The notes beneath the pieces are model-generated. The model had not been told where the DNA came from. It saw only the letters and a program-made list of their open reading frames with translations, and did not search any database. This document shows positions 28,103-32,202 of a DNA stretch of 40,516 nucleotides, one piece after another (position 1 is the first letter of the stretch; each line of letters begins with the position of its first letter). This stretch comes from a virus, in IMG/VR virus record IMGVR_UViG_3300049214_000104, positions 1 through 40,516 of that record, one strand, 5' to 3'. A program made the translations under genes and the position numbers.

Positions 28103-28122
28103 GGCGACTCAGTCGCCTTTTT
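28103..28122. terminator. Terminator between the scaffold gene and the convergent Ro60 gene
   Basis: GGCGAC-TCA-GTCGCC (28103-28108, 28112-28117) followed by TTTTT on the plus strand: a short G+C hairpin with a T run right after the scaffold stop. On the minus strand the hairpin is followed by CTTTTCTT, so it may also end the Ro60 transcript, whose stop codon lies within the hairpin. Confidence 0.75.
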
Positions 28123-29422
28123 CATTCTCCAATTCCCTAATAAAATCAATGCTAGCCTCGGAGAATCCCGTAATGGTAGTCCATTGATTGTGATTGCCAA
28201 TTCCGTTTTGATAGCCCGCGATATTAAAGATATAGTTTTTGCCGAAAGGCATTTGTGGAATCATATCGCCAATCTGCTCATCGGTAATGACGATCAAACG
28301 ATCATAGCGCATTCCACTCCTGATTACATTGTTTAGGCATCCGCCAAGATATGTTCCTGAATGAGGTTGTGAACTCACGATAGCATCACGAAGGGCCATA
28401 CCGTGCCGATTTGGAACCAAAGCGATCCCATTGGAAAAAGTAAATATAGTAGGATCGTCAGTACATTCGCGTAAAAGAATTGCCATTCCGCAGGCTGCAT
28501 CCATACGCATCATTTTTGATTTATTTGAAATTGGTGAATCCATGCTTCCAGAAACGTCAACCATAATTACGGTTTTTCCTAGGAATTTTGGTTTCAGAGC
28601 ACAAGCCTGAATCATGGCAGGATCAACAATATCCTCCCATTCTGGGCATTCTTTTGCAGCTGCAATATATTGAAAAGGAAGCATTTCCTTAGGATTACGC
28701 ATTAACTCATAAGCCACGGTTTCCTTCGGCACACCAGATTGTTGCATATTACGAAGGTTACGAAGAATCGCAAGCTTACCCAATTTACCTTTGTAAAGAA
28801 GTTCTGCGAATGTAGCTTTCTTGTCTTGACCTGCGCTTAAACGAACTTCCCAGGTGTCAGGTGTTTTGAGTTGTTTATTAGCGAGACGTTTCCACAGGTC
28901 TGCTTGATCCTTATCTTTGGGCTTTGCATGTACCAAAAAGAGTACATCACGTAATTTAATGGGATTGTCTCGGTTATATTTTCCTAATTGATATTCATCG
29001 AATTTTTGAAATGCTAATGCCAGCCCTTTTTTAAGTTGATTAGCAATTGGCTTTTTACCATCTTTCCAATACAAAGCTAAAAGATCAGTCATCATATCAG
29101 GACGTGTTATAATACAATCAATGTATCCATGTGCATTGAGACAAATATTTGGAGATTTTAAAGCTTCGACGATAAGTTGTAAAGGCACATGACGCAAATG
29201 ATAAAGATGAGTAGCGTCAAAGGCCAATTTTAGAATATCTTCGCAATTGCATCGGGAACACAATTCCTTGATTCTATCAACTACTGCAACTCCGTCCTCA
29301 TAAAAATTATCTTCAAAGAGCATGCAAGCTAGAACAGTACGTTTTAAACGCTGATACGGTGTAATTTCAACCGCTTTGCCACCTTCATGAGTAAAGATGG
29401 AGTTTCTTACATTTACTTTCAT
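28109..29422 (-). CDS. rsr: Ro60/Rsr-type protein (TROVE + von Willebrand A domains), 437 aa
   Basis: The TROVE module (about 10-280) shows its known marks: TPYQRLKRTVLACMLFEDNF, ALAFQKFDEYQLGKYNRDNP, IKLRDVLFLVHAKP, LKTPDTWEVRLSAGQDKKAT, NLRNMQQSGV. The vWA domain (about 284-437) has an intact metal site: D289-x-S291-x-S293 (DVSGSMD), Thr357 (SGTYLGG) and Asp381 (VITDEQ). Ro60 rings bind Y RNAs on the outside and misfolded or structured RNA ends in the pore; bacterial Rsr tethered by a Y RNA works with exonucleases in rRNA maturation and decay. The Y RNA-like genes lie just upstream on the same strand. The start codon follows AGGTGATTTT. The protein is shorter than vertebrate Ro60 (538). Confidence 0.93.
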   Translation of the reverse strand: MKVNVRNSIFTHEGGKAVEITPYQRLKRTVLACMLFEDNFYEDGVAVVDRIKELCSRCNCEDILKLAFDATHLYHLRHVPLQLIVEALKSPNICLNAHGYIDCIITRPDMMTDLLALYWKDGKKPIANQLKKGLALAFQKFDEYQLGKYNRDNPIKLRDVLFLVHAKPKDKDQADLWKRLANKQLKTPDTWEVRLSAGQDKKATFAELLYKGKLGKLAILRNLRNMQQSGVPKETVAYELMRNPKEMLPFQYIAAAKECPEWEDIVDPAMIQACALKPKFLGKTVIMVDVSGSMDSPISNKSKMMRMDAACGMAILLRECTDDPTIFTFSNGIALVPNRHGMALRDAIVSSQPHSGTYLGGCLNNVIRSGMRYDRLIVITDEQIGDMIPQMPFGKNYIFNIAGYQNGIGNHNQWTTITGFSEASIDFIRELENEKGD

Positions 29423-29429
29423 AAAATCA

Positions 29430-29775
29430 CCTAGAACAAGCGTAGTCAGTTTTTTTTTGAATGCAAAATCAAAGTATCTGACTACTTCACTAAGGTTTAA
29501 AATCTAAAGCGCCCGTTTTGGAGCGACCACGACACGGGCATCGCAACTATTATCTGTTCATGATTGGCTTTTTAAGGCTTCCTCAATCTTCCTAACGTGC
29601 AGTATAGTCAAAATGCTCGGACCGTTAACGGAGAGGTCATACCCGTCCGCGCTACGGAAAATAACTTAACTAAGACTACAAAAAGAGGCAACAATCGCTA
29701 AAGCTCTATCCGAGGGCTTTAACCCCTTGGGCCCCATTGGGGGGCAAAGAAATCCTTAACTACGGCACTCTTAAA
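29430..29775 (-). other. Structured non-coding leader between the tRNA-like RNAs and the Ro60 gene
   Basis: No gene is seen. On the minus strand there are several stems: CCCCAATGGGG near 29735, a capped stem AGGG/CCCT with a D-arm-like CTCGGATAGAG after it (about 29703-29730), CGATTGTTGCCTCTTTTTGT (29677-29696) nearly repeating the end of the upstream element, CCGTTAACGG (29623-29632), GCCCGT/ACGGGC (29512-29540), and GTAGTCAG/CTGACTAC just before the Ro60 start (29444-29482). The first part looks like a third, degenerate copy of the tRNA-like RNA. The rest may be leader structure or further Ro60 ligands. Confidence 0.5.
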
Positions 29776-29794
29776 ACAAAAAGGAGCAACATTC

Positions 29795-30680: not shown

Positions 30681-30685
30681 TAAAT

Positions 30686-31447
30686 TTACTCAACCTTCTG
30701 ATATGTCCATGACTCGTGTATATCTCCCGAAAACAAAGTTTTTTTGAGAATAATTCCGGACTCTTTAGTTCCAGACTGAACACATTTTCGACATTGAACA
30801 TATCGTGTTTTAGAACATCTTATGATTTCATCTATACGAGCACCCCTTTCATTTCCGCAATCACACCGGAATAATCCTCTAGTCTTTCCTGAGGAATTTT
30901 TCTCGGGAAGAATAGCAATCAATGTATTGGAACCAAATTTTTTGTTTAAATGCTTTTGATAAGGGTTTCCATTTTCTGATCTTATTTTCAAGTTTTTTTG
31001 TCTTTCGTTTAAAGAATCTTGTTTTATTTTTTTAAGCAATTCCGTTTTGTTTTTTTGAGAAATATTTACATGTTTCCAAATATTCCCTTTAAGTAAGTAT
31101 GAAATTTGTTTTGATTTCTTTTTTAAGATTGCGCAAACTTCATTTAAACTATAAATTCCATCGCGATATAATTTTAAACTAACTATTAAATCATTTTCAC
31201 TAATTTTAGTGTTCCATTTTTCCGAACCTTTTGGAGCATTTTTGATCTTGAGACAACCACAAGAATTTTTTTTATTATAACAGGATTTAGTGTAGAAAGA
31301 TGTAAAATTTCCGCATTCGCAAACCGCAGCAAAATGAACCCCTTTATTTTCCACATGACCTAAAATTGCTAAAAGGGTCAGCAGCCCTTTTTTAGAATGT
31401 AAAAGAGGTTTAGCTTTTTCTAAGCTAATTAAAGTTAATTTGTGCAT
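30686..31447 (-). CDS. Zinc-finger protein, paralogue 2 of the Ro60 island, 253 aa
   Basis: Aligns with the 30054 product: HFAAVCECGNFTSFYTKSCY then NSCGCLKIK at the N-terminus, ENDLIVSLKLYRDGIYSLNE and LLKGNIWKHVNISQK in the middle, and FRCDCGNERGARIDEI with VQCRKCVQSG near the end. It is longer, with an extra segment (about 150-185) and a 25-residue tail. Rich in Lys and Asn, with A+T-rich codons. It starts 2 bases after the ParB-like gene's end, so the three genes form one unit. No nuclease motif is complete. Confidence 0.7.
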   Translation of the reverse strand: MHKLTLISLEKAKPLLHSKKGLLTLLAILGHVENKGVHFAAVCECGNFTSFYTKSCYNKKNSCGCLKIKNAPKGSEKWNTKISENDLIVSLKLYRDGIYSLNEVCAILKKKSKQISYLLKGNIWKHVNISQKNKTELLKKIKQDSLNERQKNLKIRSENGNPYQKHLNKKFGSNTLIAILPEKNSSGKTRGLFRCDCGNERGARIDEIIRCSKTRYVQCRKCVQSGTKESGIILKKTLFSGDIHESWTYQKVE

Positions 31448-31449
31448 TT

Positions 31450-32202
31450 TTATTCATCTTGTTGTGTGAATTCATCTGTAATTTTATTAACATTCTTATG
31501 GTTGTAAATACTTATTAAAAGCGTATACCAGTTTTCAGCGCTCGCTTGGGGCTTAAGATCATACCATCGAAGGTCAAGTTTTTTGAAAAAAGTTTCGGAG
31601 GAAAACCCAGAAGTGTTTTGTAACCAACGTAAAGCCCGAGTAAAATTATGATTAGTGAACATGCCATAAGGAGTGATCTTTTTATCTTTTACGTATGTGA
31701 TAAAATCAGCGTATAAATCTATTGTCTTATCATTGTTATTTTCAACAGGAAATCTAAATTTACCCGATTTGATAAATTCAAGAATTTCTTTTGTTACCGA
31801 ACCTAAGATTAAGGTTAGCAATGCTTTTGGTTTGAGTCCTGTAGATTTAAGCATAGTTTTTAACTTAAGATATTCAGGATTTTTATGACGGATTGCATAA
31901 AAATCAATGAAGTTTCCTAAAACAAATGTGGCTTGGTTAACATTACATTCCACAAGATGGTTTTCAGTAACATCATCTGATTTAATGAAGTAAATATCTA
32001 AACCTAATTCCTTTGCTGCAAATAAACGGTGTTGCCCGTCAATAACTTCCATTTCTTTATTAACAATAATAGGATGAAGATTAAGACGGTTATCTTTGGA
32101 AATAGATTGTTTAAGTTTTCGCATATTAGGAATGCTAATATTTCGATTGCCTTGCAACATTTTAAATTGTGAATAATCATTCGTTTTTTGGATTTGTTCC
32201 AT
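31450..32202 (-). CDS. ParB/Srx-superfamily protein, 250 aa
   Basis: ATG 32202 (AGG upstream) is preferred to 32229. The N-terminal domain has the ParB-like pattern: NRNISIPNMRKLKQSISKDN, LHPIIVNKEMEVIDGQHRLF, AAKELGLDIYFIK, with the DGQHR motif intact. This fold binds nucleotides in ParB and acts in nucleases and in DndB-like and other phage proteins. The rest is helical (KSTGLKPKALLTLILGS; KKITPYGMFTNHNFTRALRW) without an HTH that I can recognise. It has a good promoter at 32232-32260. As first gene of the island it might regulate it or modify DNA. Confidence 0.8.
   Translation of the reverse strand: MEQIQKTNDYSQFKMLQGNRNISIPNMRKLKQSISKDNRLNLHPIIVNKEMEVIDGQHRLFAAKELGLDIYFIKSDDVTENHLVECNVNQATFVLGNFIDFYAIRHKNPEYLKLKTMLKSTGLKPKALLTLILGSVTKEILEFIKSGKFRFPVENNNDKTIDLYADFITYVKDKKITPYGMFTNHNFTRALRWLQNTSGFSSETFFKKLDLRWYDLKPQASAENWYTLLISIYNHKNVNKITDEFTQQDE

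What the first reader, a model, noticed from the sequence alone, without database searches (positions are those of the whole stretch)
28109..32202. Ro60 island splits scaffold from capsid gene
Scaffold (27461-28096) and coat genes are normally adjacent; here 4.4 kb of minus-strand DNA with its own promoter (32232-32260) and a terminator at the far end separates them: ParB-like, two paralogous zinc-finger proteins, Y RNA-like genes, Ro60. The orientation, own promoters and A+T-rich zinc-finger genes suggest a moron-like insertion acting as one module, perhaps for defence, counter-defence or RNA takeover. No known defence system has this exact set as far as I can tell.
Basis: inference. Interest (0 to 1): 0.8.

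Follow-up and report, generated by a model that had tools for sequence, protein, structure and literature searches.

The report
Phage Ro60 and Y-RNA cargo cassette
A virus of bacteria carries, in a spot where its relatives store ever-changing extra genes, a Ro60 RNA-binding protein with four small Y RNAs, one of which imitates a whole transfer RNA, next to an unrelated low-GC gene cassette; it is probably a kit for handling RNA during infection, not one new defence island.

Summary
The island is real but is not one module. In 70 related phage loci the scaffold-capsid gap ranges from 161 bp (empty) to 4.6 kb and holds different, mostly reverse-strand cargo. The window carries two cassettes there. 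Cassette A: Ro60 plus four tandem Y RNAs (Y1 a circularly permuted tRNA mimic with an anticodon-like arm, Y2 without D arm, Y3 two hairpins, Y4 minimal). Cassette B: a ParB-like gene plus two CxCG/helix-turn-helix proteins, 31% GC. The nearest relative, L115, has Ro60 and four matching Y RNAs in the same slot but no ParB match in its record; cassette B relatives occur in phages without Ro60; none of 160 other Ro60 loci has cassette B within 5 kb. Co-inheritance is refuted; a moron-like cargo slot is supported. Likely function (inferred): a Ro60 RNP whose Y RNAs tether Ro60 to host RNA- or tRNA-handling enzymes; a tRNA decoy against anticodon nucleases is the main rival. Phage Ro60 and YrlA-type Y RNAs are already known. 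Still of interest: the multi-head Y RNA array, the ParB/CxCG pair, and a free-standing ncRNA inside the array.

The parts
28097..32268 (.). cargo slot between the scaffold-like gene's stop codon and the capsid-gene promoter
   Evidence: In empty relatives such as L057 the scaffold stop is followed directly by the capsid promoter TTGACAAAA...; gap length 161-4589 bp in 70 loci
28103..28117 (.). bidirectional hairpin terminator shared by the scaffold-like gene (+) and Ro60 (-)
   Evidence: GGCGACTGAGTCGCC with T-runs on both sides
28109..29422 (-). Ro60 (TROVE + vWA) protein, 437 aa; cassette A
   Evidence: Pfam/PHROG; AF2 model matches phage, bacterial and animal Ro60 structures 9kop, 9l5y, 1yvp, 2nvo; metal-site residues D289, S291, S293, T357, D381 invariant in 13 homologues
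29429..29496 (-). Y4: minimal Y RNA ending just before the Ro60 start codon
   Evidence: bulged Ro60-type stem; 12 of 14 pairs with two-sided changes across 12 phages
29500..29658 (-). separate structured ncRNA with its own terminator, not a Y RNA (approximate borders)
   Evidence: conserved TATGRCCTCTCCGNTAACGGYCC core also in L004, and free-standing in L113 and L114 without Ro60; absent from L115
29683..29772 (-). Y3: Y RNA with two-hairpin head (GCCCCCCAATGGGGC type)
   Evidence: scan score 32; similar units in L115 and L030
29783..29885 (-). Y2: Y RNA with anticodon-arm-like hairpin, T-arm and acceptor-like hairpin but no D arm
   Evidence: same layout in L003 and L077
29895..30032 (-). 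Y1: Y RNA whose head is a circularly permuted tRNA (anticodon-like arm, T-arm, GCAA-closed acceptor, D arm)
   Evidence: Rfam YrlA E 1.2e-6, 38 bits, below the gathering score of 69; anticodon-like arm ttcga-CTTGTAA-tcgag
30039..30047 (-). extended -10 (TGATATAAT), putative promoter 6 nt upstream of Y1
   Evidence: sequence; the aligned block shared with L115 reaches 30048
30054..30680 (-). CxCG zinc-finger/HTH protein 2, 208 aa; cassette B
   Evidence: 31.6% GC
30686..31447 (-). CxCG zinc-finger/HTH protein 1, 253 aa; cassette B
   Evidence: PHROG 374 'HNH endonuclease' match over the zinc-finger part only, E 2.5e-7; 30.8% GC
31450..32229 (-). ParB-like (DGQHR) protein, 259 aa; cassette B
   Evidence: PHROG 12305 E 3e-25; model resembles ParB/Noc/KorB, best E 1.1e-3; relatives of 40% identity or more are followed directly by a CxCG gene
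32232..32260 (-). promoter-like site of cassette B
   Evidence: TTGACC-17-TATTCT, 9 of 12; weak
32274..32302 (+). capsid-gene promoter, right edge of the slot
   Evidence: TTGACA-17-TAAAGT, 10 of 12; similar site directly after the scaffold gene in empty relative L057
27461..28096 (+). scaffold-like gene (left flank)
   Evidence: same position and 37-56% identity in most relatives; no profile names it
32461..33432 (+). major capsid protein gene (right flank)
   Evidence: PHROG 1357 'major head protein' E 1.3e-18; mostly 83-92% identical across about 80 metagenomic phages

Best explanation
The island is a cargo slot, between the scaffold-like gene and the capsid gene, that holds two separately inherited cassettes. 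Cassette A makes a Ro60 protein and four Y RNAs from its own promoter. Each Y RNA has the same bulged stem with internal loop, the presumed Ro60 grip, but a different head: a permuted tRNA with an anticodon-like arm, a tRNA mimic without D arm, two hairpins, or almost nothing. Inferred mechanism: Ro60 holds the stems while the heads dock host RNA- or tRNA-acting enzymes (for example PNPase or tRNA modification enzymes), so that the phage redirects host RNA decay and tRNA handling during infection; Y4, ending at the Ro60 start codon, may let Ro60 control its own mRNA. Cassette B is a low-GC insertion of a ParB-like protein coupled to CxCG/HTH proteins, probably a mobile DNA-binding (homing-type) or regulatory pair with no mechanistic link to Ro60. 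Shown by comparison: slot, two cassettes, Y RNA architecture, horizontal transfer. Inferred: every step of function.
For: Variable slot in 70 loci. L115 shares the Ro60 and Y1 blocks by DNA alignment and carries units corresponding to all four Y RNAs, but nothing aligned to 30049-32338; its record has no ParB match. ParB relatives (40-62% identity) are followed at once by a CxCG gene in four other phages. GC split 31% against 39%. Ro60 tree: window, L115 and L002 form a 100/99 clade although L002's capsid protein is only 34% identical, while L030 (capsid 89%) carries a distant Ro60, so the gene moves between phages. Y RNAs: four hits, none of 1000 shuffles with two or more; at least one unit upstream of Ro60 in 67 of 75 viral and 50 of 74 bacterial loci; covariation in Y4 and in a related three-hairpin head. 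Anticodon-like 7-nt-loop arm in 47 of 68 tRNA-like Y RNAs against 11.3 in shuffles. Ro60 fold and metal site intact. Y-tethered Rsr-PNPase is known from Deinococcus (read in PMC7790460).
Against: No expression, binding or phenotype data exist. The host is unknown, so host partners cannot be named. The Y RNA scanner was designed partly on this region and requires pairing, which inflates the Y4 covariation counts. The layout could serve quality control of the phage's own RNA just as well. Cassette B's mobility is inferred from distribution; no borders, duplications or nuclease motif were found.
Confidence: 0.6

Rival explanations
1. Cassette A is mainly a counter-defence decoy: the tRNA-like Y RNAs, protected by Ro60, imitate tRNAs with an anticodon loop and occupy host anticodon nucleases that would otherwise cut tRNAs and abort infection.
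For: Y1 is a permuted tRNA mimic with a 5-bp/7-nt anticodon-like arm with U33 and purine 37. The study of the Salmonella operon itself suggests YrlA as a competitive inhibitor of an anticodon nuclease (PMC7790460).
Against: Y3 and Y4 have no tRNA-like features. The anticodon-like triplets vary widely between phages and bacteria, so no single nuclease is implied. No tRNA-repair gene was recognised among the window genes that were profiled.
Confidence: 0.25
2. The whole island (ParB, zinc fingers, Y RNAs, Ro60) is one co-inherited defence or takeover module, as first proposed.
For: Same strand, one continuous insertion, short spacing.
Against: L115 lacks the ParB/zinc-finger half; ParB/CxCG occurs in phages without Ro60; none of 160 other Ro60 loci has it within 5 kb; GC differs.
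Confidence: 0.05
3. Cassette B is a transcriptional regulator pair that silences or controls the capsid operon or cassette A.
For: ParB/KorB/SbnI-type proteins include transcriptional regulators (weak matches); the pair lies between two divergent promoters.
Against: Relatives of the pair lie at other places in other phages (L071/G031 far from the capsid gene, L092/G049 in the slot), so no fixed target promoter.
Confidence: 0.3
4. Cassette A is a neutral or selfish passenger with little effect on infection.
For: Present in only 4 of 50 near-complete relatives and exchanged between phages.
Against: Ro60 metal site and the Y RNA stems are kept across divergent phages, and the pairing of Ro60 with Y RNAs persists in unrelated phages.
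Confidence: 0.1

Closest known systems
Rsr/Ro60-Y RNA RNPs of bacteria (Deinococcus RYPER; Salmonella rsr-yrlBA)
   Same: TROVE+vWA Ro60 protein encoded next to Y RNAs with a bulged Ro60-type stem; tRNA-like head
   Different: four Y RNAs with different heads, no rtcBA repair operon seen beside it, carried by a phage in a structural-gene slot
Phage-borne Ro60/TROVE proteins (crAss001, CcrColossus, jumbo phages, Thermus phage phiLo, Listeria phage CKA15)
   Same: phage Ro60; Y RNA arrays also in the cultured phages checked here, Olaya (4 units) and CcrColossus (5 units)
   Different: different phage lineage; its own 10-member phage Ro60 clade with 100/99 support
YrlA (Rfam RF02553)
   Same: T-arm, closed acceptor hairpin and D arm in permuted order
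   Different: extra 5-bp/7-nt anticodon-like arm ahead of the T-arm, outside the stretch matched to the Rfam model; score below gathering threshold
ParB/Noc/KorB/SbnI ParB-N family
   Same: G-x-x-R motif (GQHR) and N-terminal ParB-like fold
   Different: the rest of the model fits poorly; coupled to CxCG/HTH proteins
HNH/homing-endonuclease accessory CxCG + HTH domains
   Same: CxCG...CGC zinc finger and a WKH-ending HTH-like segment, with weak matches to HNH PHROGs
   Different: no HNH nuclease core was recognised in either protein

Membership tests
Ro60/Rsr protein family | TROVE domain above curated cut-off | tested here: met
   PF05731 41 bits, cut-off 23
Ro60/Rsr protein family | vWA domain with metal site D-x-S-x-S, T, D | tested here: met
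   vWA_Ro60 31.7 bits, cut-off 27.7; D289, S291, S293, T357, D381 invariant
Ro60/Rsr protein family | Ro60 fold | tested here: met
   model pLDDT 85 matches 9kop E 8e-21, 9l5y, 1yvp, 2nvo
Ro60/Rsr protein family | binds Y RNA | not testable with these tools
   needs biochemistry
Y RNA (Ro60-binding stem) | lower stem with single-base bulge and internal loop, next to a Ro60 gene | tested here: met
   four units; the motif was defined here from phage loci
YrlA (Y1 only) | permuted T-arm, acceptor hairpin, D arm | tested here: met
   alignment over model positions 24-84
YrlA (Y1 only) | Rfam gathering score | tested here: inconclusive
   38 bits against 69; only the head matches the model; E 1.2e-6
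YrlA (Y2, Y3, Y4) | D arm present | tested here: not met
   no D-arm motif in these units; Y RNAs by stem, not YrlA
RYPER-type RNA degradation machine | Y RNA tethers Ro60 to PNPase | not testable with these tools
   host and partners unknown
ParB-N family (cassette B) | Pfam ParB_N above cut-off | tested here: not met
   12.7 bits, cut-off 26.3; but PHROG ParB-like E 3e-25, so called ParB-like only
ParB-N family (cassette B) | ParB fold | tested here: inconclusive
   Foldseek E 1.1e-3, probability 1.0, TM about 0.3 over the whole model
HNH homing endonuclease (CxCG proteins) | HNH nuclease motif | tested here: not met
   no HNH domain in Pfam; weak PHROG matches cover zinc finger/HTH parts
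known anti-phage defence systems | match to PADLOC-DB models | tested here: not met
   no match for any of the four proteins

The most novel reading that the evidence does not exclude
The phage uses one Ro60 protein as a shared socket for an array of structurally different Y RNA adaptors, one of them a full permuted tRNA with an anticodon-like loop, so that each adaptor plugs a different host RNA- or tRNA-processing enzyme into the same RNP: an exchangeable multi-head RNA adaptor system for reprogramming host RNA metabolism.
Probability: 0.3. Interest if true: 0.75.

Novelty: new member of a known kind. Interest (0 to 1): 0.48.

Why it matters
Bacterial Y RNAs have been studied in few organisms and the role of phage Ro60 is unknown. 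Arrays of several Y RNAs beside Ro60 are common in phages and bacteria and exist, unannotated, in cultured phages such as Caulobacter phage CcrColossus (five units) and Xanthomonas phage Olaya (four units, beside a Ro60 annotated only as hypothetical). That makes the question of what the different heads recruit testable now. The ParB/CxCG pair is a candidate two-gene cassette for further study, and the slot between scaffold-like and capsid genes is a productive place to look for phage cargo.

Tried and rejected
One-module reading: rejected (see above). A search of viral contigs with the ParB protein found no relatives because its peptide patterns were too specific; replaced by record-wise genome search. 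YrlA-like pattern hits in L043 and L074 look by eye like pairs of adjacent ordinary tRNA genes and were discarded. Minus-strand 445-465 aa genes in L043, L074 and L076 looked Ro60-sized; L043 is a type III restriction-like helicase and L074 an SPFH protein by Pfam, and L076 resembles the L043 protein by eye. Known defence systems: no match. NCBIfam: no match. Rfam at gathering scores found nothing in the window. The capsid protein and zinc-finger protein 1 have no match in the cultured-phage collection. Key primary papers on bacterial Y RNAs (Chen 2014, Sim and Wolin 2018 and 2020) are not held, so prior reports of arrays could not be checked; what they say is taken from citing papers.
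Full report
OBSERVATION. The window is a 40,516-base IMG/VR virus record. Between a scaffold-like gene (27461-28096, +) and the capsid gene (32461-33432, +; PHROG 1357, E 1.3e-18) lie 4364 nt whose genes run on the minus strand: ParB-like 31450-32229, two paralogous CxCG zinc-finger proteins (30686-31447, 30054-30680), a noncoding block 29423-30053, and Ro60 28109-29422 (TROVE and vWA_Ro60 above Pfam cut-offs; PHROG 850). The scaffold label rests on position only. The cassette B promoter is a weak consensus match in a region with only a mild excess of such matches.

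THE SLOT. I fetched 80 relatives of the capsid protein, most of them 83-92% identical. In 70 loci with both flanks the scaffold-capsid gap ranges from 161 to 4589 bp, median 764. The larger gaps hold mostly minus-strand genes that differ from phage to phage: HNH-like CxCG proteins, a metallophosphatase, SPFH/Band_7 proteins, a type III restriction-like helicase, a RING/U-box protein, and tRNA-like genes. In the empty phage L057 the scaffold stop codon is followed directly by the capsid promoter TTGACAAAA..., which in the window appears at 32274. The island therefore occupies 28097 to about 32268 of a recurrent cargo slot. Absence of this island is the usual state.

TWO CASSETTES. The closest relative with Ro60 in the slot is L115 (Ro60 72%, portal 70%, capsid segments about 88-90% identical). 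Window 27776-29502 and 29854-30048 align with it, 30049-32338 has no counterpart apart from one 39-nt reverse-strand scrap, and alignment resumes at the capsid leader; its 38-kb record has no ParB match. Conversely, ParB relatives of 40-62% identity (L103/L275, L104/L092, L105, L106) are each followed immediately by a CxCG protein, and the four records behind them (G031, G049, G009, G043) have no Ro60 match. More distant ParB-like proteins lack the CxCG partner directly downstream. Among 160 further Ro60 loci from viruses and bacteria no ParB or zinc-finger match lies within the fetched flanks of up to 5 kb. In 50 near-complete relatives Ro60 occurs in 4 and ParB-like in 12, together in 2 (about 1 expected), and there at separate places. 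The ParB/zinc-finger genes are 31% GC, Ro60 39% and the Y region 42%, window 39%. The island is thus cassette A (Ro60 and Y RNAs) plus an unrelated cassette B.

HORIZONTAL TRANSFER. In a tree of 34 Ro60 proteins the window, L115 and L002 form a clade with 100/99 support, inside a ten-member phage clade (100/99); L002 is sister to L115 (99/95) although its capsid protein is only 34% and its portal 29% identical to the window's. L030, whose capsid protein is 89% identical, carries a Ro60 from another part of the tree. Position also varies: between scaffold-like and capsid gene in the window, L060, L030 and L115, but behind the portal gene in L077 and L088.

THE Y RNAs. Folding and a rule-based scan (stem, one-base bulge, two pairs, short internal loop, inner stem, then a TACTT-like motif) give four units in the 631-nt noncoding block; of 1000 dinucleotide shuffles 4 gave one hit and none gave two. 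Similar units lie upstream of Ro60 in 67 of 75 viral and 50 of 74 bacterial loci, up to four each at this stringency. The heads differ. Y1 carries, in order, an anticodon-arm-like hairpin (ttcga-CTTGTAA-tcgag), a T-arm, an acceptor stem closed by GCAA, and a D arm: a circularly permuted tRNA. Rfam YrlA matches its T-arm to D-arm part (E 1.2e-6, below the gathering score). Of 68 tRNA-like Y RNAs collected, 47 have a stem of at least 4 bp with a 7-nt loop at that place against 11.3 after shuffling, 37 with U33 and 38 with a purine at 37. Y2 lacks the D arm, Y3 has two hairpins, Y4 has a minimal loop and ends just before the Ro60 start codon. L115 carries units corresponding to all four in the same order (sequence). 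Y4-type units show two-sided changes in 12 of 14 pairs; a related three-hairpin head in L002, L004, L077, L088 and L102 shows them in 19 of 34. Because the scan demands pairing, the Y4 count is biased upwards; the head helices of the three-hairpin class were not part of the scan rule, although I drew that structure on one of its sequences. An extended -10 (TGATATAAT, 30047-30039) lies 6 nt upstream of Y1.

A FIFTH RNA. Between Y3 and Y4 lies a different ncRNA with its own terminator. Its core TATGRCCTCTCCGNTAACGGYCC occurs exactly in four other viral records: two carrying the L004-type array and two (L113, L114) where it stands alone with no Ro60 match nearby. It is missing from L115, so it too is probably an addition.

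MECHANISM (inferred). Ro60 with an intact metal site and the Ro60 fold (best matches 9kop and 9l5y, a Ro60 dimer from Thermus phage phiLo) should grip each Y RNA by the common stem and expose a different head. In Deinococcus the Y RNA tethers Rsr to PNPase, and for Salmonella YrlA a role as anticodon-nuclease inhibitor has been proposed (PMC7790460); a PNPase-type or RNA quality-control role was raised for a Listeria phage (PMC12282133) and RNA repair for jumbo phages (PMC7824862). My preferred reading is a multi-adaptor RNP that redirects host RNA decay and tRNA handling; the decoy reading is the main rival. For cassette B the ParB-like model weakly matches ParB/Noc/KorB, and the CxCG/HTH proteins resemble DNA-binding parts of HNH endonucleases without the nuclease: a mobile DNA-binding pair or a regulator.

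NOVELTY. Phage Ro60 and YrlA are known; mycobacteriophage Y RNAs are credited to Chen 2014 by PMC12282133. The multi-Y-RNA array with distinct heads is present also in cultured phages CcrColossus (five units; an annotated tRNA-Gln lies inside one of them) and Olaya (four units). I could not read the primary Y RNA papers, so I file this as a new member of a known kind, in a new genomic setting.

Noticed in passing
window 29500-29658 (-); L113 about 2477 (-); L114 about 7230 (-); L004 about 9766 (+): A terminator-ended structured ncRNA family with core TATGRCCTCTCCGNTAACGGYCC, free-standing in two phages and inserted in the Y RNA array of others; no Rfam match in the window.
   Followed up: partly
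L115 reverse complement about 7213-8403; L003/L120 capsid region: The capsid gene is interrupted by three inserts of about 230-340 nt with internal stops and GACTA...TAGTC elements suggestive of group I introns (L115); L003/L120 also has a split capsid gene. Rfam gathering search of L115 found nothing.
   Followed up: partly
L087, L088, L089, L092, L094-L097 capsid gene start: In these relatives the first 15-30 residues of the capsid protein do not align in line with the rest, as if the 5' end of the gene were replaced or interrupted; several have an HNH-like CxCG gene just upstream.
   Followed up: no
L279:3128-3195 (Caulobacter phage CcrColossus 109217-109284): An annotated tRNA-Gln lies wholly inside a Y RNA unit (L279:3120-3292), so it is probably the tRNA-like part of a Y RNA.
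   Followed up: yes
L278:3977-5296 (Xanthomonas phage Olaya): A protein annotated 'hypothetical' is a Ro60 with four Y RNA units upstream.
   Followed up: yes
L089:3763-4803 (-): Cargo gene in the slot with a RING/U-box-type zinc finger (Pfam zf-RING_UBOX E 1.3e-6), unusual in a phage.
   Followed up: no
L030:6570-7427 (-), L074:8244-9641 (-): SPFH/Band_7 proteins as cargo in the same slot, in L030 next to Ro60.
   Followed up: no
window 32303-32460 (+) and the same place in relatives: Capsid leader with repeated GCGTTA...TTCGC hairpin-like elements and a conserved block around GATCG in many relatives, a likely structured 5' UTR.
   Followed up: no
L043 about 7724-7922 (-), L074 about 7918-8113 (-): Pairs of adjacent tRNA-like genes in the slot; the 3' half of one followed by the 5' half of the next has the order of a permuted YrlA head, a possible origin of YrlA.
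   Followed up: no
window 24709-25236 (+): HNH endonuclease gene (PHROG 20891 E 7e-24) downstream of the portal gene.
   Followed up: no
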